A stretch of DNA of 64,000 nucleotides, from assembly GCA_947568835.1 (NCBI GenBank), contig OX387605.1:12280418-12344417 (forward strand), given 5' to 3'. Each line of letters begins with the position of its first letter. The first letter of the stretch is position 1. The stretch is from Protonemura montana. Taxonomy: Eukaryota; Arthropoda; Insecta; Plecoptera; Nemouridae. The notes beneath the pieces are model-generated. The model had not been told where the DNA came from. It saw only the letters and a list, made by a program, of their open reading frames with translations, and did no database searches. Shown one piece after another: positions 1-29,649 of the stretch. A program made the translations under genes and the position numbers.

Positions 1-435
1 GACAGAGTGCCCTCAGTTCGCGAGCGTACCTGCTCGGAAAATACTGCCATATTGCTGGCAAATAAAGGAGAACTTGACAATGTCAACCAATGTGTTGACC
101 TATAGACCCCACAGCAGCTGCGTTTTGAACCAATATACTATTTGTATGGGATGTAACATTTTTATGTCATATGACTTGCGTCCCTGATAACTTTCACAGC
201 TGACTCAATCTAGTTCAGAAAGCATGTCGTAGAGAAAATGCAGTGGTTGTTTTTCTATCAATGGGACGTTCTCTTTATATGTTGGTTCCCTAGCTAATTC
301 ACATGCATTCAGAATCAGATCCTGTGCTCAGATTTTTTCGGTTTTGTGCCCTGGATAGCAGAGTGATAATCCACTTTATTTTTTCCATTCTAAAAACAAC
401 ATGATCTAATTCCTGTGCTTTGATATCTTTTGCAG

Positions 436-903
436 GTTAAAATCTGGTTCCAAAACCGCCGTACTAAGTGGAAAAAGCAGGACAACATCAGCAACGCCGA
501 GGCGGCCGAGCACAAGAGTGCTCTGAAACCTGAACCGACTCCGGGTGCCAAGGCCACCGCATCGCCCGGCTCCAAACCCGCGACACCCACCATCGCCCCG
601 GCTACGCCCGACGCGAAGGCCGAAGACGACGACGGCGTCCCTCCAAGTACGGCCACGGCGACGACCACCTCATCGACGCTGCCCAACTCTGACATCGACG
701 ACCATAGCGACGGCAGTGTGTTTTCGAGGGACGACGGCTCGGTCTCCGAAAGCGGCTTCTCTGACGGCGACCATCAGATGGTAACCACCAGTTTGACGCT
801 GAACGTCGACGCGTTGGCCCCCGACAAAGAGGCGCTGCCGCCAACGCCACCTGCCAGCGAGATCGCGACGTCGACAGAGCCGCCGGTGTCGCCACCTAGC
901 TAG
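436..903 (+). CDS. NK7.1: NK7-like homeobox protein, last exon (C-terminal part)
   Basis: Sequence-specific transcription factor of the NK class, acting in the nucleus. The exon opens after a splice acceptor (ctttt-gcag) exactly at homeodomain position 45 (VKIWFQNRRTKWKK), a common homeobox intron site. Trp48, Phe49, Asn51 and Arg53 of recognition helix 3 are all present, with Gln50 and Thr54. The homeodomain is followed by QDNISNAEAAEHK, which I recall as typical of NK7.1, and then a low-complexity Ala/Thr/Pro/Ser tail with an acidic Asp/Ser stretch, ending at TAG (901-903). Helices 1 and 2 lie in upstream exons outside the window. The homeobox assignment is secure; the NK7 subclass rests on the post-homeodomain motif from memory. 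The next best guess would be another NK1/NK7-type gene. Confidence 0.78.
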   Translation, partial: VKIWFQNRRTKWKKQDNISNAEAAEHKSALKPEPTPGAKATASPGSKPATPTIAPATPDAKAEDDDGVPPSTATATTTSSTLPNSDIDDHSDGSVFSRDDGSVSESGFSDGDHQMVTTSLTLNVDALAPDKEALPPTPPASEIATSTEPPVSPPS

Positions 904-8302: not shown

Positions 8303-8346
8303 GTCCCGAGAGAATGCGCGGGCATGTCCTCCAAGAACCCTCAAAA

Positions 8347-8566
8347 GCGAGGCGGGTTAAATTCAGACAGACGTTTATCAGCTGAATAAATGCCTAGCGG
8401 TCGCATCGCCAGCGACCGAGCTGTGACGTCGCCTGGAGTGGGGGTAACTCCACTCGCTTGGCAAGCGAGGCGGGATGAATTCGAACAGACTTTTGTCAGC
8501 TGAATACATGCCCTCCCTCAGACCGCCGGCGACCGAGCTGTGACGTCGCCTGGAGTGGGGGTAATC
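8347..8566 (+). repeat. Tandem subterminal repeats of the P-type element
   Basis: Two direct units, 8347-8455 and 8465-8566, share GCGAGGCGGG at the start, CAGCTGAATA in the middle and GACCGAGCTGTGACGTCGCC near the end. A third, inverted unit lies at 12949-13020 (GACGTC...CAGCTGACAAAAGTCTG). The arrangement resembles the subterminal binding arrays of other DNA transposons. Confidence 0.8.
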
Positions 8567-8650
8567 GCAAGCTCTTGGCAATGCATGCAAAGCACCAAGG
8601 TCGCAACAATAACACAATGATAGCGACTGGTGGTTACCCTCTAGCTAAGC

Positions 8651-11600
8651 ATGTGGTTGGTCATTTCCGCGGGTAGATTTATAACCCTACGGCTTGGAGC
8701 AATATTACTGTCAGCAGCATTGCTTTTTGGGAAGAAGGATTTGGTCGGAATTTTTGGGCGAAAACATAAGTCTTGTTGCTTGATTTACTTAAAAACATTG
8801 TTTACCGAGCAAAAATCTTTTATAATTTCCATCCCAGCAGTATTCCAATGGATAGGGTGTGGTAACGTAAAATCGAAGGAAGCCGTCGATTTAAACTTCT
8901 TTGGATTTCCCAGAGATGACGAGGAGAGATTAGACGAATGGCTTGAATTTTGCAACAATTTCCGCCTATCGGGGGCGTTCCTGAGGGCAGCTGTGATCTG
9001 CCAACGACACTTCACAGACGATTGTTTTATGAATTCCGAGCACAAAAAATTAAACAAATTGGCTGTGCCTACTCTTGATGGTAAGATCTTACATGACCGC
9101 ATTACCCAGGACTCGGTTATGGACGCATATCAAATAGGAAGCCAAAATTTAACTGCAAGGCCGAGTCTGACTTGCACCTCGGAGAAGACATCTTTACCCT
9201 CGACTTCTAGAATAGGAGATCGACTGTTCCACCAGACGGCGGACAGTGAATACAGCGACGATATCAATATTCCTGACGTCGAAACTCCTACAAAACAAAA
9301 TTACCAAGAAATAATTCGCGATTTGAATTCGAAAATTGACGAACTTCAAGAAAGAATTAAGTCAGACGATACCCCGCGAAAACGTAGGCTGTCATGTCGC
9401 ATTTCTGATTTGACAGCTAATGTTCATCGGAAGCGGGCAAAGGCTAGGTACTCTGATCAAGCCCTTCGGAAAGAGATGGACAGAGATCTGTCCCGTGAGG
9501 AGGTAGCCGAGGCAGCTGAACAATATTTGCATGGCGCCCCCCTAACATTTTTTCGCATGCAATTGCTTCATAAACAAAGTCAACGCTGGCGCGAAGATGA
9601 AAAGCAATTCGCAATGGCCGCCCACTACAAATCCCCTGGACTCTATCGAGATCTGAAGGATAAATTTGGGTTTAAACTCCCTAGCAAGTCAACGTTAGAC
9701 AACTGGCAGAACGTCTTAGATTTGCAGCCCGGGCTGTGTCCACCCCTCATGGACAAAATTAGAATCAAAATGTCAGAAATGCATGAGCGAGAAAGACAGT
9801 GCGTTTTGTTGTTTGACGAAATGTCAATTAAGAAAGATTTGCAGTTCGCACAGCAATACGACCTTGTCGAAGGATTTGAAGATTTAGGCGAAATTGGTCG
9901 AACCGCGGCGCCAGGTACGCACATTTTAGTATTCATGATTCGCGGACTAAATTTCAATTACAAATTACCAATTGCGTATTACGTGGCGTCCACCGTGGTC
10001 AAAGGAGACGCTCTGCTGAAATTAGTGCATTCGGTATTGGACAGTTTGCGCGAAGCCGGGGCGATAGTTAGAGCAATCACTTGTGACCATGGCCCAAATA
10101 ACCGCGCGTTCGTTAAAGCAGCAAAAATTCATAAAGACGAGCAATACTTTTACCACGGTGGACAGAAGCTCTTTGTTCTTTACGACGTCCCTCATTTGTT
10201 TAAAAGCATCCGAAATAACCTGCTGTCCAAAAATTTTTGGGTCGAAATCGAGGGAAAACTTCGCCTTGTTTCCTGGCGCGACATTCGCGATGCTTTTGAG
10301 TTAGATCAGCGATCGACGCTTGCGCGAGGCAACGTGCGCCTTAGTTCTCGCCATATTGCTCCAAATTCTTTTGAACGCATGTCAGTCAAACTTGCAGTCC
10401 AGGTTTTCTCAGAATCAACTGCAGCTTTGATCTTAACCGCGATTGAAACTAAGCAGCTAAATAGCCCTAGCGCGGAGTGGACGGCTAAATTCATTCGCGA
10501 ATTGAACCATCTTTTCGACGCTCTCAATAGCAGTCAAATGCATGTCGGGAACCCTTACAATTGCGCCATTTCGGATGAGCACAGAATAGCTCGCGAGTGT
10601 TTAGAAAACGCGTCTAAATTCATCGGTACGTGGATTGTGTCCGCAAAAAATTCTAAAACGCACCTTCGTCCGCCTTGTTTTGATGGGTTACAAAACACCA
10701 TCAAAGGCATACTTGCTCTTTGGAAAGATTTGAAGTCGGATGGTAGTAAATTTCTGTTAACGTCTCGACTCAACCAGGACCCCCTAGAATGCACGTTTTC
10801 CGTTATCCGGGGACGTGGTGGCTACGATCGTAATCCCTCTGCACAGCGCGTGCGCCGCGTTATGCAGATCATAATTAACATGCACTTGGCAAAGCCTTCC
10901 CGCACATCTAATACCAACAGTCAGCACGACGACGATGTGAATTTGCTTACGCATTGTGCAGAGGGAATCGAACCCGGAGCTCTCACCGAAGCCCTCGTCG
11001 CCCCCGACCTACCTCTAGACAATAACGACACACCGATTGACGAGACTGACTTGCCGTACGACGACAATGTTGAGCCTGAAGTCATTCGGATAGAGCCAGT
11101 AGCCGAGCCCGAACCCGCCAACGAGCCAATTGGCCAAGAAGGACTTCGGGACCTAAAAATTCGCATGTCACTTCTCGAGAAGGAAAGTTATTTTGACGAA
11201 ACCGAAATGACCGAAGAAGAATACATCGCACAAATAGAATCACTCGAGGATCTTGAAACCAATCCAAATTTACATCACGACGCTTTACTGCATGATGGTC
11301 GGGGCGCGACGTTAGAATCTAACTCAGTCAGATACTACGCCGGCTATTGCGCGAAAGTTTGTTTACGAAAGTTTTCTTGCGATTTGTGTAAGTTGGATAT
11401 GATCAAGGACAATAAAACTTTAGAGAGCACACACGAGCTTCTTCTTTTCTACAAAGCATATCGCAACAAAAACGAGGATCAATTGGGGGGACTGTGTCCT
11501 CCCACTGATTTCCTTCATGAAATTGCTACAATTGCTCTTAGAACTTACGCGCGTGTGGCTACGACAACCTTCCACCATCCGCAGATCTTATGTAGATCGA

Positions 11601-11863
11601 TGGATGCTGTTATCAACGCTTTGGATGTGTCTCATCCAGAGTGGCTGTCAGCTGAACACACATGCTACAATCATCGCAAGTTTTTCTTGAGGCATATGAT
11701 TTTTGTCAAAATTAGGAAAGATTGCAATTGGCGCTCAAAAGAACTTCGCATGCCAAAACCCCAGAGGAAAAATAAGGATCGTTCTGCCAGTTCAGAAGGC
11801 TCATCGCAGCCTACGAAAGCCGACCCGCGCTATCAAAAACTTCAAAATTTGCGGCACGCATAG
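8651..11863 (+). CDS. THAP-domain P-element transposase, full-length open frame
   Basis: Transposase of the P/THAP9 superfamily: binds the element ends through an N-terminal zinc finger and cuts and rejoins DNA with an RNase H-like core. The frame is 1070 codons without a stop. Residues 70-142 form a THAP domain: Cys70, Phe86-Pro87, Trp97, CxxH at Cys117/His120, and closing AVPTL. The first Cys of the C2CH set is not visible, and residues 1-62 look unlike a THAP start. There is a good acceptor (atttccatcccag, 8824-8837), so the true N-terminus probably lies in a small upstream exon. A short coil follows at about 210-240. The catalytic core shows LFDEMSIKKDL (Asp389), CDHGPNN (Asp479) and QDPLECTFSVIRGRGG (Glu713), a plausible D-D-E triad. 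The C-terminal YYAGYCAK...CxxC motif is also typical. It looks intact and potentially active. Confidence 0.88.
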   Translation: MWLVISAGRFITLRLGAILLSAALLFGKKDLVGIFGRKHKSCCLIYLKTLFTEQKSFIISIPAVFQWIGCGNVKSKEAVDLNFFGFPRDDEERLDEWLEFCNNFRLSGAFLRAAVICQRHFTDDCFMNSEHKKLNKLAVPTLDGKILHDRITQDSVMDAYQIGSQNLTARPSLTCTSEKTSLPSTSRIGDRLFHQTADSEYSDDINIPDVETPTKQNYQEIIRDLNSKIDELQERIKSDDTPRKRRLSCRISDLTANVHRKRAKARYSDQALRKEMDRDLSREEVAEAAEQYLHGAPLTFFRMQLLHKQSQRWREDEKQFAMAAHYKSPGLYRDLKDKFGFKLPSKSTLDNWQNVLDLQPGLCPPLMDKIRIKMSEMHERERQCVLLFDEMSIKKDLQFAQQYDLVEGFEDLGEIGRTAAPGTHILVFMIRGLNFNYKLPIAYYVASTVVKGDALLKLVHSVLDSLREAGAIVRAITCDHGPNNRAFVKAAKIHKDEQYFYHGGQKLFVLYDVPHLFKSIRNNLLSKNFWVEIEGKLRLVSWRDIRDAFELDQRSTLARGNVRLSSRHIAPNSFERMSVKLAVQVFSESTAALILTAIETKQLNSPSAEWTAKFIRELNHLFDALNSSQMHVGNPYNCAISDEHRIARECLENASKFIGTWIVSAKNSKTHLRPPCFDGLQNTIKGILALWKDLKSDGSKFLLTSRLNQDPLECTFSVIRGRGGYDRNPSAQRVRRVMQIIINMHLAKPSRTSNTNSQHDDDVNLLTHCAEGIEPGALTEALVAPDLPLDNNDTPIDETDLPYDDNVEPEVIRIEPVAEPEPANEPIGQEGLRDLKIRMSLLEKESYFDETEMTEEEYIAQIESLEDLETNPNLHHDALLHDGRGATLESNSVRYYAGYCAKVCLRKFSCDLCKLDMIKDNKTLESTHELLLFYKAYRNKNEDQLGGLCPPTDFLHEIATIALRTYARVATTTFHHPQILCRSMDAVINALDVSHPEWLSAEHTCYNHRKFFLRHMIFVKIRKDCNWRSKELRMPKPQRKNKDRSASSEGSSQPTKADPRYQKLQNLRHA

Positions 11864-25207: not shown

Positions 25208-25448
25208 CCGACGCAATTTGAGAAAGAAAAGCAGCGAGTGCACCCCAAAATTCAGTGCTGTCCCGCAGTTTGGCGACGATGGAGGATCGCTCAGCACCAG
25301 GATGCAAAGGGTTGCTTGTTCGAATCATGTAAGTAACATGTCATCAATCCTTATGTGTTTAAAACTGCTGGATATGTGTCAATCTTTACAGAAAAAACGT
25401 TCATCTTATCTCTATGGTGTAGTGAGATCCCCGCCAGCTGCTATTCAA
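25208..25448 (+). CDS. Two orphan coding exons
   Basis: Exon 25208-25328 starts after acgacag and ends at a strong donor (AATCAT|gtaagt). Exon 25392-25448 starts after aatctttacag and ends CAA|gtacat. Read as C+40 codons and then 19 codons they join in phase 0, giving a Ser/Arg/Lys-rich stretch (RRNLRKKSSECTPKFSAVPQ ... KKRSSYLYGVVRSPPAA). They may be a further C-terminal portion or alternative end of the coiled-coil gene, or part of an unseen gene. The frame does not connect cleanly to the TGA-terminated exon at 23886-24032. No continuation was found before the retroposon cluster that begins about 30 bp downstream. Confidence 0.45.
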
Positions 25449-25477
25449 GTACATGTTATTTCCTCATGCAGTGACAG

Positions 25478-25571
25478 GTCCCAGTGGCTGATTGGTATAA
25501 CCGTCTCAACGGTATAACCACATCTTCAAGTGGAAATTCAAAGTTACCTGGGTTCGATTACCGCTCGGTGC
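25478..25571 (+). mobile_element. tRNA-like SINE head
   Basis: A-box-like TGGCTGATTGG and B-box GGTTCGATTAC at tRNA spacing. The DNA between them does not fold as a good cloverleaf, so this is a tRNA-derived retroposon head rather than a tRNA gene. It begins about 30 bp after the orphan exon. Confidence 0.6.
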
Positions 25572-25729
25572 ACATTTTGTTCTTCATCAAGTGACGACTG
25601 GCATTCATTGAATGCTGCACCTGTTGCATCACGCGTCCATCCATCAAAACTCTTCAAATATCATTTTCATTACTCTGAATTGTCGTCTCCTGCGATTCAT
25701 GTATCTCTTACTTCCCTCCAACAATTACC

Positions 25730-25812
25730 GTGGCACGGTGGTTGATTGGCAGAGTCGCACCTCTGTGAGCAGCATATGCCAGGATGGACCAGTTTCGAAG
25801 CCATGGCCGTTC
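25730..25812 (+). mobile_element. Second tRNA-like SINE head
   Basis: A-box-like TGGTTGATTGG and a decayed B box (AGTTTCGAAGCC). Followed by GTTCTTCAGAAAGTAGCGAC, which resembles the TTCTTCATCAAGTGACGAC after the first head, so the two are tandem members of one family. Confidence 0.5.
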
Positions 25813-26159
25813 CGCTTTTTGTTCTTCAGAAAGTAGCGACAGAAATTTGTTATGAGAGACAGATTGCATCACGTGTTTGATAACAAATCAAGCAAATATT
25901 CTACGTCCTCGTAGCGCGGTAGCCCGCATCTTTGGAGTAGACGATTGCCCCTGCACTACTTGGGGGTCAGGTCCACTTCTTGCTCGCTGCGTAAGTGATC
26001 ATAGTCGGCCATTATATTTTCAATTTCTTACCGAAACGCGAAGAAAAATGCGACTCCAAACCGTAGTATACATTGAGTGCAGTCAGTGACATGTGCCTGC
26101 AGTCAACCCGGTAGACAGGGACATCAGAAATGAAATAAAAATATATTCAGTTGTATCAA

Positions 26160-26822
26160 AGGATGTATGACCGTCTACGTAGCACAATTGAAATGTCGTT
26201 ACTTCGGAAGAATCAAGCAGCGATGTAACCTGGTTCGGATCCGCTCGCCGGCAAAACGTTTTTTTCTGATGGAATACGACATTCAAAATGCACACATGGT
26301 AGCTGCAGTCAGAAGACGTAGATACTTGAAAAATGCTGACGAGAGGAGATGCCCGCGTGGTCGTGCGGTACAAGGCACTACCTCATCAACAAAGAGATAA
26401 GAAATGTGTGGTGCTGGGTTCGAATCTCGTCCGTACGATTGTCGCAGTTTCACACCTCTTCAATTTTTTTTTTAACGTTCAATAAAGAAACCAGGAAAAT
26501 CGCGAAGCGCAACTGGCGCTTCGCGCCAGTTGCGCTTCGCGATTTTGACGGCGTCCAAGCGCGCTTCGCGCGCTTGGACGCGCCCGCGCGACCTAGCGCG
26601 CTCCGCGCGCTAGGTCGCTCCGAGGAGCTCCGGCGCGAAGCGCCGGAGCTCCTCGGAGCGCGGGTGCGACCGGCGCGGAGCGCCGGTCGCACCCGGGCGT
26701 GCCACTCTTTTCTAGCGCTGGCTCCTACGTCTAGCATCAAGTATATAGGAACGATTATAATGAGTGTTAAGCATCATCAGCGCCACCTGTTGGCAGGATT
26801 TTGTACTACACTCTCGACTCTA
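26160..26822 (+). mobile_element. Composite tRNA-like retroposon with palindrome module, copy 1
   Basis: Modules in order: a first tRNA-like segment (ACCGTCTACGTAGCACA...GGTTCGGATCC, 26168-26240); a linker; a second tRNA-like segment with A box TGGTCGTGCGG and B box GGTTCGAATCT (26351-26440); a T-rich stretch; five abutting GC-rich palindromes (26496-26695); and a 3' module, GGCTCCTACGTCTAGCATCA ... CGCCACCTGTTGGCAGGA ... ACTACACTCT (26720-26814). The same module order recurs at 27053-27530, with only one palindrome. Pol III-type boxes suggest a SINE. The palindrome block is not part of any SINE family I know. Confidence 0.7.
26496..26695. repeat. Five back-to-back perfect palindromes
   Basis: 26496-26546 (24-bp arms), 26551-26581 (14-bp arms), 26588-26618 (14-bp arms), 26616-26660 (21-bp arms) and 26661-26695 (16-bp arms). 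All arms are perfect. All have a 3-nt centre (TTC, TTC, TCC, GAA, GGA) flanked by GCGC, so each apex is GCGC-NNN-GCGC. Arm sequences differ from palindrome to palindrome, so this is not a tandem duplication of one hairpin. Confidence 0.95.
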
Positions 26823-26952
26823 AAATAAGGAGACATTTGCCTTGGAAAATATCAAAATATTTTTTCAGAGTGTAGTACACAATCCTGTCAACAGGTGGCG
26901 CTGATGATGCGTAACACTCATTATTATCGTTCCTATACACTTGATGCTAGAC
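26729..26952. repeat. Large inverted repeat of the 3' module
   Basis: Arms 26729-26814 and 26867-26952 are reverse complements with only a handful of mismatches (GTCTAGCATCAAGT, TATAGGAACGAT, TCATCAGCGCCACCTGTTG, GTACTACACTCT), separated by about 52 bp. The right arm is an inverted copy of the retroposon 3' end. Confidence 0.9.
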
Positions 26953-27052
26953 CTAAGGGCCAAGGCGAGAATATGGCAGGGTCGCTCCGGGTGCCCATGA
27001 TATGTTGTATGGTAGTTTGTTCATCCATGGTGAAAATTCCAGGAAGAGTTAA

Positions 27053-27530
27053 CGGATGATCGTCTGCGTGGCACATTGGTATTGTCGCTGCTTCGGCATC
27101 GTCTAAATGAAACATGAAATGCAACATCCACCCGTGGGACCTGCGGTCATGAGATTTGTATATGTCAAAAAATGAAGGGGTAAATGTTTATCCGCGTGGT
27201 CGTGCGGCTAAAGGCATCGGATTGATCGATCACATCAATGTCGAATTGACGACGTACCGGGTTCGAATCACGCTCGTGTCTCGACGCAGTGTCATACTTT
27301 TCCATTTTTTGGGCGTATGTTTTTTAGACAGTAGCAAAATTGCCGGGCGCTCCTGGCGCTCCGCGCCAGTCGCACCCGCCAATTTTGCGGGACGTTCCCA
27401 CGACCCCAGACCCCACCTAACCCCGTGTGCGGCTCCTAAGTCTAGCATCAAGTATATAGGAACAGTTGTGCGTGCTAAACTGCCACCTGTTGGCAGAATT
27501 TCGAACTACACTCTGGACTTATAAAATTTT
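27053..27530 (+). mobile_element. Composite tRNA-like retroposon, copy 2
   Basis: Same modules as copy 1: GATCGTCTGCGTGGCACA segment; linker; CCGCGTGGTCGTGCGGCTAA...GGGTTCGAATCAC tRNA-like segment (27191-27290); one imperfect palindrome (27334-27388, apex GGCGC-TCC-GCGCC); 3' module GGCTCCTAAGTCTAGCATCA ... GCCACCTGTTGGCAGAAT ... ACTACACTCT. More diverged than the arms around copy 1. Confidence 0.7.
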
Positions 27531-27598
27531 TGATATTTTATCCAGCTTCATCGAGTTTGATTATTAGCTACCAGAGCGACTTGAGCTCAGAGCTGCCA

Positions 27599-27680
27599 AA
27601 AAGCTGCACGGCCGGGATTCGAACGCCTGACCTCCTCAACACGAAGCAAGCAAGCTAACCACGGAGCCACGCTGGACTGA
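27599..27680 (-). mobile_element. tRNA-like SINE head, minus strand
   Basis: The reverse complement has A box TGGCTCCGTGGTTAG and B box GCGTTCGAATCCCG with near-tRNA spacing. The ends do not pair as an acceptor stem, and it lies among other tRNA-like retroposons, so it is called a SINE head. Confidence 0.55.
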
Positions 27681-27802
27681 TGAGAGGGAACTGAAATAAA
27701 GCAACTAAAATGTCAAAGATTCGATGTAGCTACAATCTCTTTACATATCGTTGTGTTGCAACAATTTATATTTATTAAAACTCTGCGCTACTTTGTGACC
27801 AG

Positions 27803-27890
27803 CCTCGTGGTCAAGTTGTCACGTTGCCTGTTTTAAGTATGCCAGCGGGGCCGAAGTATGATACCCGCTCTGTGAATCTAATATTATTTC
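27803..27890 (+). mobile_element. Degenerate tRNA-like segment
   Basis: CTCGTGGTCAAGTTGTCACG resembles an A-box region, followed by GCCGAAGTATGATACCCGC in place of a B box. Likely an old member of the same cluster. Confidence 0.35.
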
Positions 27891-29649
27891 ACTAAAAGTT
27901 TAGGTGTTCGACCTATCATTGACTTCAAATTATACGTTTATTTGCCAAAGTTGAGAAAATGTACATTTAGGCGTTCTCAGTAAATTAAATTAATAATAAT
28001 ACAAGTATGAGTAGCAAATAAATGTATGTTAAAATTTAACATAAGTTCATCTATATATTAGCACTCAGATTATAACAAATATGACAGATGTATTCAAGAA
28101 TATTACATTATTACAGATACATACACAATTACGACATTACATACAACAGGTACAAAGAACAGATTACATATAACCACCAAGATATTATCTACGCGCATAT
28201 AGAGAAAGAAGGCTTCGCTTCTACACAATGTGTAAATGCCGGACCGGACCCCAACACCAAGCAGTGCTGAGGCACGCGGCCACTCCAAAAAATGGGCTTT
28301 CACCAGTTGCCACGATCTAACGCGAAAATGCAAGCCTTAGAGTCCGACTGGAGGAACGCCAGTCGAACCCCGTTGCTCGAAGGTAGGTCCCCTGGTCAAC
28401 CATACCAAACAAGTATCACCGAACCAGCAGTCGAGTTAAAGCACAAAGTGATCGCAAACGCAATCTGTTGGATATCAAATGTACTTGATCAATTAAAATG
28501 TCGATAAATCACGGCCATCGGTCGGTAACCCTTGTATCCACCTTGTTGAGTTGCTAACCTTGAAGCTATAAAATAACGGAATCGTGCCCATAATAGCCCA
28601 GTGTTCGGAAGTGCAAACTATCACATGGACCAAGTATGGGCGAATCTTAAAAAATCAATAAAAACCGTAAGAAACGTAAAACACATCCATTGATTTTTTT
28701 ATAATTTTTTAGTGGAAATTTAAGTGAGGGACTTTGACTCGCGAGGGGTGTCAACAGGGGTAGAATTGTAAGGGCAGTTGAATACAACCCCCTATTTGAA
28801 CCTACGATGGAAACTTACCACAATTTTATTGATTTTCTTTTGAGAATTCCCCGAGTTCTTCGACTCCCAACGCCTGGACTGTAGACATAACGTAAGCGCA
28901 CAACTATACGATGGGTGGCCTAACCATCAGGATTCATACATGAATATTGGTGTGATCACAAATCGGTCCCAATATACAGGACCCTATAGCGCAGTATTTA
29001 TTTTATTTTTTATTTTTCGCAGATAGGATAATGGGTAAGAGGTTTTTGGAATACAGATAACTGTGTAAGCAAAATTTTGTTTTTATTGTTAGTGATGGTA
29101 GTACATTTTATTATCACAAGCAGCAACAAAGTCACATTTAAAAAAACTACCTTCAACTAAGTTTTTTTAATGCTAAGTGAAGAACAACTTATTTTCTTAA
29201 AGTTTTGCAACTTATTCCTGTTACTTTATCAAGGGTGAAAGAAGTCTTGACATTTCTTTGATAACAAAAAGAGCCACAAAAATATAAACAATTACTTTTA
29301 CTTACATAATTACCCTCATAATTACTGTTGGTAAACGTTGGGAAAATGAGCTGTTCTTAGCATTAAAAAACCAATTTGAAAAGAGTTTTCTCGAAACCGG
29401 TGCAAAAGTCCTCCGAATCCAAGCCACGAACCAACAACCATTTCAAGTTCAAAGCAGAACACAAAACGGATTTCAGACCGCCCTGGAAGCTATTGGGTAG
29501 CTACGTCCAATAAACAAAATCAAAATTAGTTTTACATTCCAGTTGACCGGTGCTTTTGATTGGAGGAAGCTAAAGAACAGCTGACAGTTTCCCAAGATAT
29601 CTGTCTCAGTGACCTTTTGCTTCTCATCCTGCGGTTGTTTAATTCCTAA
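27891..29649. other. Intergenic or intronic DNA without a recognised gene
   Basis: AT-rich with a GC-richer patch at 28215-28400. That patch includes short hairpins (GCCGGACCGGACC; TCCGACTGGAGGAACGCCAGTCGAA) that may be a further decayed tRNA-like element. No supported exon. Confidence 0.35.

What the first reader, a model, noticed from the sequence alone, without database searches (positions are those of the whole stretch)
26496..26695. Five abutting perfect palindromes with a shared apex rule
Seen directly: five perfect GC-rich palindromes (arms 24, 14, 14, 21 and 16 bp) lie back to back over 200 bp. Each has a 3-nt centre (TTC, TTC, TCC, GAA, GGA) between GCGC and GCGC, yet the arm sequences differ. 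They sit at the same place in a composite retroposon whose second copy (27334-27388) has a single, related, imperfect palindrome that aligns only with the first of the five. So the block seems to have grown by adding new hairpins that obey the same apex rule. On one strand several apices contain GCGAAGC, known to form an unusually stable DNA mini-hairpin. This may be a hairpin-generating process or a protein-binding array in an undescribed element family.
Basis: partly seen in the sequence, partly recalled or inferred. Interest (0 to 1): 0.8.

Follow-up and report, generated by a model that had tools for sequence, protein, structure and literature searches.

The report
Self-repairing, flipping DNA hairpin arrays
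A repeated DNA element in an animal genome carries rows of up to six near-perfect mirror-image hairpins whose two halves keep matching and whose three-letter tips often turn around, which looks like the fossil record of DNA copying that jumps between strands.

Summary
The five palindromes are real (arms 24, 14, 14, 21, 16; 3-nt centres) and the only perfect ones of that size in the 64 kb. They are not unique to this locus: 38 of 48 loci examined in the same 258 Mb genome carry 3-6 such hairpins. The core GGCGC-TYC-GCGCC occurs 730 times against 4 for its control. A commoner, presumably ancestral unit has one imperfect hairpin (468 exact cores); copies with one perfect, three, five and six hairpins exist. 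Two marks point to template switching during DNA synthesis. (1) Arm changes come in pairs: 83 both-arm against 89 one-arm cells; the element's own wide-spaced inverted repeat gives 2 against 60. (2) Tips invert exactly between copies 1.0-2.4% diverged, in three pairs with unchanged arms. Both are the published signature of template switching. All four 3-nt spacer inversions in a published yeast table obey the same tip rule, which matches the very stable GNA DNA hairpin. The process is known; my searches found no report of it on this scale in a nuclear repeat, or of the tip rule. Element class, function and read support stay open.

The parts
26496..26546 (+). palindrome 1 (T1 type), arm 24, centre TTC; same place as the single hairpin of the ancestral-type unit
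   Evidence: aligns with 27326-27387 (D2)
26551..26581 (+). palindrome 2 (T3 type), arm 14, centre TTC
26588..26618 (+). palindrome 3, arm 14, centre TCC
26616..26660 (+). palindrome 4, arm 21, centre GAA
26661..26695 (+). palindrome 5 (T6-like), arm 16, centre GGA; also resembles the single hairpin of the second unit
   Evidence: (D1, I2)
26352..26434 (+). tRNA-like head (A-box-like and B-box-like strings seen by eye)
   Evidence: repeated in unit 2 (D5 and D6); not confirmed by ARAGORN or Rfam
26464..26473 (+). T-run between tRNA-like head and hairpin row
26710..26814 (+). left arm of the long inverted repeat; holds the 3' module 26720-26814 (671 first-look candidates in the genome, 40 scored)
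   Evidence: (I1)
26867..26971 (-). right arm of the same inverted repeat, 90% complementary, 52 nt away; control for arm homogenisation
27192..27277 (+). tRNA-like head of the second unit, by eye
   Evidence: D5, D6
27334..27388 (+). single imperfect hairpin of the second unit (ancestral type), centre TCC
   Evidence: I9
27431..27519 (+). 3' module of the second unit
   Evidence: D3, D4
25289..28727 (+). approximate, interrupted span of a diverged copy of the ~4 kb composite element that hosts the row
   Evidence: window 71-75% identical to L058 over the left part, 91% over the right part

Best explanation
A repeat family carries a GC-rich quasi-palindrome with a 3-nt tip that reads GRA on one strand. 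During DNA synthesis the nascent strand leaves its template at this hairpin. If it folds back on itself, one arm is rewritten from the other and the tip stays. If it jumps to the complementary strand, the arms are made identical and the tip comes out inverted. Repeated events turn the ancestral imperfect hairpin into a perfect one, keep it perfect while its sequence drifts, and flip the tip. Longer jumps, or duplication followed by such repair, add new hairpins to the row. Shown: copies with one, three, five and six hairpins; paired arm changes; exact tip inversions between close copies; little such pairing in the wide-spaced inverted repeat. Inferred: the polymerase mechanism, the direction of the series, the role of the GNA tip, and the step that adds hairpins.
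For: Both-arm changes nearly equal one-arm changes (83 against 89 of 4,181 pair cells; 3 cells with two unlike changes), where about 1.4 both-arm matches would be expected by chance (my arithmetic); 10 of the 28 distinct both-arm variants occur in one copy only. The long inverted repeat in 28 copies of the element gives 2 against 60, and at its 9 sites that differ between the arms the difference is kept in 224 of 237 cells (10 homogenised, 3 other). Mismatched pairs are 2.25% (92 of 4,086) although flanks differ from consensus by 2.5% (downstream) and 6.6% (upstream) per site. Tip inversions: minimum 5, 5 and 10 on the flank tree for T3, T4, T5. Pairs with identical arms and only the tip inverted: L026/L028 T5, L019/L021 T5, L026/L043 T4. 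L074 keeps the ancestral-type imperfect first hairpin where L073, 1.5% diverged in flanks, is perfect. Single-hairpin units made perfect: L096 with flipped tip, L100 and L101 unflipped. Of the 100 listed of 468 quasi-palindrome cores none is flipped, as expected if a flip also perfects the arms. L102 has three hairpins. The same two effects are described for yeast (PMC8604942), and fold-back correction and palindrome elongation with amplification for rad27 yeast (PMC5677150).
Against: In the 36 copies of the tree set the first, second and last hairpins show no flip (36, 27 and 36 tips), although their arms are as long as those that flip; outside that set one damaged row, L040, has a flipped first and second hairpin. 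No cause was found. Many nodes of the flank tree are weakly supported and recombination between copies could inflate the flip counts. Ten cells of the wide-spaced repeat are homogenised. No reads, alleles or related species were available, so no single event is seen in progress. Conservation of the tip may be mere inheritance: TTT and TAC tips survive in some copies.
Confidence: 0.72

Rival explanations
1. The hairpins are kept perfect by selection on a folded RNA or DNA (small-RNA precursor, protein-binding array), by ordinary two-step compensatory substitution in a few source copies.
For: Conserved order and core in most array copies; strong hairpins on either strand; a hairpin after a tRNA-like head could matter to an RNA.
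Against: Ten of 28 both-arm variants are found in a single copy each (window, L012, L047, L069-L073), where copy-by-copy selection is unlikely. Tip inversion changes the loop of any RNA yet is common. The long inverted repeat is not kept matched.
Confidence: 0.1
2. The tips flip and arms are rewritten by cruciform extrusion, resolution and hairpin opening, or by a rolling-hairpin replication stage of the element (compare flip/flop of parvovirus terminal hairpins, recalled).
For: Would also give inverted tips and perfect arms; the arms are long enough to extrude (inference).
Against: No frame above 111 aa in the one full-length copy scanned (L053 3613-7143); the row is internal to the ~4 kb element, not at its end.
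Confidence: 0.12
3. Plain common descent: young copies of a few source elements that already differed; no process acts in the copies now.
For: 18 of 28 both-arm variants are shared by two or more copies; T3 tips carry phylogenetic signal (5 flips against 11.6 in shuffles).
Against: The T5 tip shows almost none (10 flips against 10.9 in shuffles); L058 and L059 are 97.0% identical over 8.3 kb, beyond the element, yet their T5 tips are opposite. The source copies would still need the process.
Confidence: 0.08
4. Assembly or sequencing artefact at palindromes.
For: GC-rich perfect palindromes are hard templates; reads were not available.
Against: The same order and types of hairpins recur at dozens of loci on at least nine contigs; arm mismatches do persist in some copies.
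Confidence: 0.04

Closest known systems
Quasipalindrome template-switch mutation; arm homogenisation and spacer inversion in Saccharomyces (PMC8604942)
   Same: Perfecting of arms and exact inversion of spacers; all four 3-nt spacers in its Table 2 are TCC/GGA or TTC/GAA.
   Different: There single-copy coding genes and ten inversion events; here a multi-copy nuclear repeat with rows of hairpins. That paper's main text does not contain the words GNA, triloop, loop or stable.
Template switching making RNA hairpins in rRNA and microRNA genes (PMC8794818)
   Same: New perfect stems, paired changes, loop inversions.
   Different: There a paired change together with loop inversion was 'extremely rare'; here loop inversion is frequent, and L096 shows both.
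Palindrome correction and elongation in rad27-deleted yeast (PMC5677150)
   Same: Quasi-palindrome to palindrome correction; insertions by palindrome extension plus amplification, a model for growth of the row.
   Different: Laboratory mutants; the word 'inversion' does not occur in its main text.
Mitochondrial double-hairpin elements and similar GC-rich palindromes (as cited in PMC7218506)
   Same: Small hairpins in variable number, thought mobile.
   Different: Organelle DNA; here nuclear, inside a larger repeat at a fixed place.
d(GCGAAGC) / GNA trinucleotide-loop DNA minihairpins (Hirao 1994, Yoshizawa 1997; seen only as cited in PMC11352879 and PMC6479982)
   Same: Tip is C-GAA-G or C-GGA-G on one strand.
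   Different: A physical property of oligonucleotides; not known to me as a rule of genome repeats.

Membership tests
template-switch (quasipalindrome) mutation products | imperfect ancestor turned into perfect inverted repeat | tested here: met
   L096, L100, L101 against the 468-copy quasi-palindrome; L073 against L074; direction inferred
template-switch (quasipalindrome) mutation products | spacer inverted in place with arms unchanged | tested here: met
   L026/L028, L019/L021, L026/L043; minimum 20 flips by parsimony, subject to recombination between copies
template-switch (quasipalindrome) mutation products | short spacer favoured | tested here: met
   3-nt hairpins homogenised, wide-spaced inverted repeat (52 nt in the window) hardly (10 of 237 cells at differing sites)
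template-switch (quasipalindrome) mutation products | dependence on replication direction or on repair genotype | not testable with these tools
   needs strains
tRNA-derived SINE | tRNA-related head recognised by a tRNA model | tested here: not met
   no tRNA hit by ARAGORN or Rfam in the stretches given; boxes seen by eye only
tRNA-derived SINE | A-rich or simple-repeat tail and target-site duplication | tested here: inconclusive
   sharp 3' end ...CCAGTCCGACACTG without A-tail in 15 of 17 right ends printed, one variant (L049), one copy (L054) ending elsewhere; 5' ends vary; no target-site duplication was established
MITE / foldback element | terminal inverted repeats with target-site duplication | tested here: inconclusive
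   inverted modules are internal to the ~4 kb element; duplications not sought systematically
mitochondrial double-hairpin element | stand-alone mobile unit in organelle DNA | tested here: not met
   copies lie on contigs of 13-33 Mb inside a larger repeat

The most novel reading that the evidence does not exclude
The tip itself is the engine: a triloop that reads C-GRA-G on one strand folds so stably in single-stranded DNA that it licenses inter-strand template switching, so any repeat that acquires it turns into a self-perfecting, flip-flopping and multiplying row of hairpins. The same tip marks all four 3-nt spacer inversions listed for yeast, so this would be a general sequence rule for a mutation hotspot.
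Probability: 0.3. Interest if true: 0.82.

Novelty: new variant of a known kind. Interest (0 to 1): 0.64.

Why it matters
Template switching at hairpins is a known mutation process, but it is usually inferred from isolated events. Here one genome holds hundreds of related hairpins at graded stages, with a built-in marker (tip direction) and a built-in control (the wide-spaced inverted repeat). It could measure rates, show what sequence makes a hairpin a hotspot, and test whether the GNA tip is the cause. It also shows how perfect hairpins might arise and persist without selection for structure, a warning for reading compensatory changes as evidence of function.

Tried and rejected
Rfam hits to microRNA and other families over the row and the inverted modules all lie below the gathering scores and reflect pairing; rejected. 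DNA folding with ViennaRNA gives the same -7.8 kcal/mol for all seven tips tried; it evidently does not model the GNA bonus, so it cannot test the tip rule. An exact 23-nt module string in genome contigs and viral contigs: no hit. I considered that hairpins flip only when they touch their right neighbour; measured gaps did not bear this out cleanly. Wobble against other mismatches (47 against 45) does not separate RNA from DNA explanations.

My second checkpoint note says the first, second and last hairpins never flip; a later check found one exception, L040, and the report follows the check.

Rows dropped: one search assigned a hairpin only at 75% match or better; further left out those below 84% (except window and L032), which favours intact hairpins; one search repeats the mismatch count on the 36 copies without the 84% cut. 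T2 was not counted where its best place coincided with T3. The tree set of 36 needs T1, T4 and T6, so damaged rows such as L040, and the window, are outside it. Two outlying copies (L015, L070) raise the upstream divergence. Of 36 copies, 28 held both inverted modules for the control. Two fetched loci (L077, L078) were not in the 48.

Full report
Observation. The five palindromes exist as described: 26496-26546, 26551-26581, 26588-26618, 26616-26660 and 26661-26695, arms 24, 14, 14, 21, 16, each with a 3-nt centre between GCGC and GCGC. They are the only perfect palindromes with arms of 12 or more and loop up to 10 in the window; Markov-1 sequence with the block's composition gave at most one, in 4 of 300 trials. 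The single hairpin of the second unit aligns by position with the first palindrome but its arms also match the fifth (D1, D2, I2).

Setting. The window is part of contig C3 of a 258 Mb, 34-contig genome. The 3' module next to the row has 671 first-look candidates, of which 40 were scored. I fetched 39 of these besides the window, and ten more loci found with the hairpin block. Forty-eight loci were examined (39, eight of the ten, and the window): 38 hold three to six perfect GCGC-NNN-GCGC palindromes with arms of 10 or more, and 195 of 199 such palindromes have TTC, TCC, GAA or GGA as centre. Of the 40 found by the module, 30 have three or more. The host repeat is about 4 kb in full copies (3145-7136 in L058 turned to the module's strand), with a sharp 3' end and variable 5' ends. 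One full-length copy has no frame above 111 aa (L053). It shows several tRNA-like stretches by eye, but ARAGORN and Rfam report no tRNA in the stretches given, so I do not file it as a SINE.

Presumed ancestral state. A simpler unit is far more common. It has a tRNA-like head, a T-run, one imperfect hairpin and the same 3' module; the window's second unit is one. Its exact 25-nt core occurs 468 times (234 on each strand); in the 100 listed, the tip is TYC in 93, TAC in 6 (five of them in one tandem array) and TTT in 1, and never GRA. Genome-wide, GGCGC-TYC-GCGCC has 730 sites against 4 for the reversed pattern. All tips together have 895 sites against 118, and GYA tips have 19 against 9. So the excess is almost wholly GRA/TYC. 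Many of these sites share ancestry, so they are not independent.

Stages. Perfect single hairpins exist: L096 (arm 26, tip flipped), L100 and L101 (arm 26, tip not flipped in unit orientation, judged by eye from the flanks) and L099 (arm 16). L102 has three hairpins in a row, the third with one mismatch and a flipped tip. The window copy has five, the main family mostly five or six. The ancestral-type hairpin corresponds by place to the first of the row; the others fall by arm into a TGGCGC class and a GCGCGC class.

Arms evolve together. Over 210 hairpins (4,181 arm pairs), 89 cells differ from consensus in one arm, 83 in both arms with pairing kept, 3 in both without. About 1.4 both-arm matches would be expected from the overall rate (my arithmetic). 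The 83 cells are 28 distinct site-and-base changes, 10 of them seen in one copy only. On 36 copies 92 of 4,086 pairs are mismatched, while flanks differ from consensus by 2.5% (downstream) and 6.6% (upstream) per site. The long inverted repeat of the same element, with a wide spacer, is the control: in 28 copies 60 one-arm and 2 both-arm cells, and at the 9 sites where its arms differ 224 of 237 cells keep the difference, 10 are homogenised, 3 other.

Tips invert. In 36 array copies the third, fourth and fifth hairpin types carry both orientations. Minimum flips on the tree built from non-hairpin flanks are 5, 5 and 10; the first, second and sixth types show none. Outside that set, L040, a damaged row, has a flipped first hairpin (one arm mismatch) and a flipped second one, so the rule for end hairpins is a tendency. 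The T5 count is close to that of shuffled labels (10.9), which means very fast flipping or exchange between copies; recombination between copies and weak nodes could inflate the counts. Clean cases with identical arms: L026/L028 T5 (TTC/GAA), L019/L021 T5 (TCC/GGA), L026/L043 T4 (GAA/TTC), with flanks 2.0-2.4% diverged; L073/L074 T5 (1.5%) and L043/L076 T4 (1.0%) also flip, with one arm difference each. L058 and L059, the 10-kb versions of L028 and L026, match at 97.0% over 8.3 kb, beyond the element on both sides, so that flip came after the larger stretch had been copied.

Mechanism. Arm homogenisation plus spacer inversion is the stated result of DNA polymerase template switching between inverted-repeat arms (PMC8604942; abstract, passages and section 6 read). 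An intramolecular switch makes the arms equal; an intermolecular one can also invert the spacer; short spacers favour it. PMC8794818 (abstract start and passages) reports loop inversions in rRNA genes and calls a paired change with loop inversion the strongest possible support, but extremely rare. L096 shows that combination. Palindrome elongation with amplification (PMC5677150, abstract start and passages) offers a way to add hairpins; here that step is inferred only.

The tip rule. In Table 2 of PMC8604942 four of ten inversions have 3-nt spacers: PIM1 TCC/GGA, YPS1 TTC/GAA, YBZ1 TTC/GAA, TAT2 GAA/TTC. All four obey the rule found here, and three have the C-G closing pair. If all 64 triplets were equally likely this has a chance of 1.5e-5 (my arithmetic; coding constraints ignored, and noticed after the fact). 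That paper's main text does not use the words GNA, triloop, loop or stable. GNA loops are the extraordinarily stable DNA minihairpins of Hirao and Yoshizawa (seen as reference titles in PMC11352879); a passage in PMC6479982 reports a 6 degree higher melting point for GAA than GTA. The excess of purine over pyrimidine at the middle position here fits this order, but common descent could also explain it.

What is open. Why end hairpins flip so seldom is unknown. Transcription, function, mobility and read support are untested. My literature searches (listings with abstract starts) showed no report of such a nuclear hairpin-row repeat, in a library that lacks most subscription papers.

Noticed in passing
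PMC8604942 Table 2: All four 3-nt spacer inversions listed in yeast genes are TTC/GAA or TCC/GGA, the same rule as in this repeat.
   Followed up: partly
L102:140-255: A three-hairpin row (perfect, perfect, one mismatch with flipped tip) between the one-hairpin and five-hairpin states.
   Followed up: partly
array copies L009-L076, hairpins T1, T2, T6; L040: End hairpins of the row almost never flip their tip while interior ones flip often; L040 is the one exception seen. No cause found.
   Followed up: partly
G000:C1:28855658-31153459: Several tandem arrays with period about 1.7-1.8 kb, units carrying the single hairpin; in one (C1:30578192-30584977) all five listed tips are TAC.
   Followed up: no
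G000:C5:921508-921746 and the right end of L052: The last ~33 nt of the ~4 kb element are tandemly repeated beyond its 3' end, a hint on how it ends or moves.
   Followed up: no
window 8651-11863 (+): Open 1,070-aa frame with THAP and P-element-transposase-type domains.
   Followed up: partly
window 430-903 (+): Frame that starts with the end of a homeodomain (Pfam score just under the cut-off), probably an exon of a homeobox gene.
   Followed up: no
window 8345-8581: Two tandem copies of a 117-bp unit, 82% matches, just upstream of the transposase-like frame.
   Followed up: no
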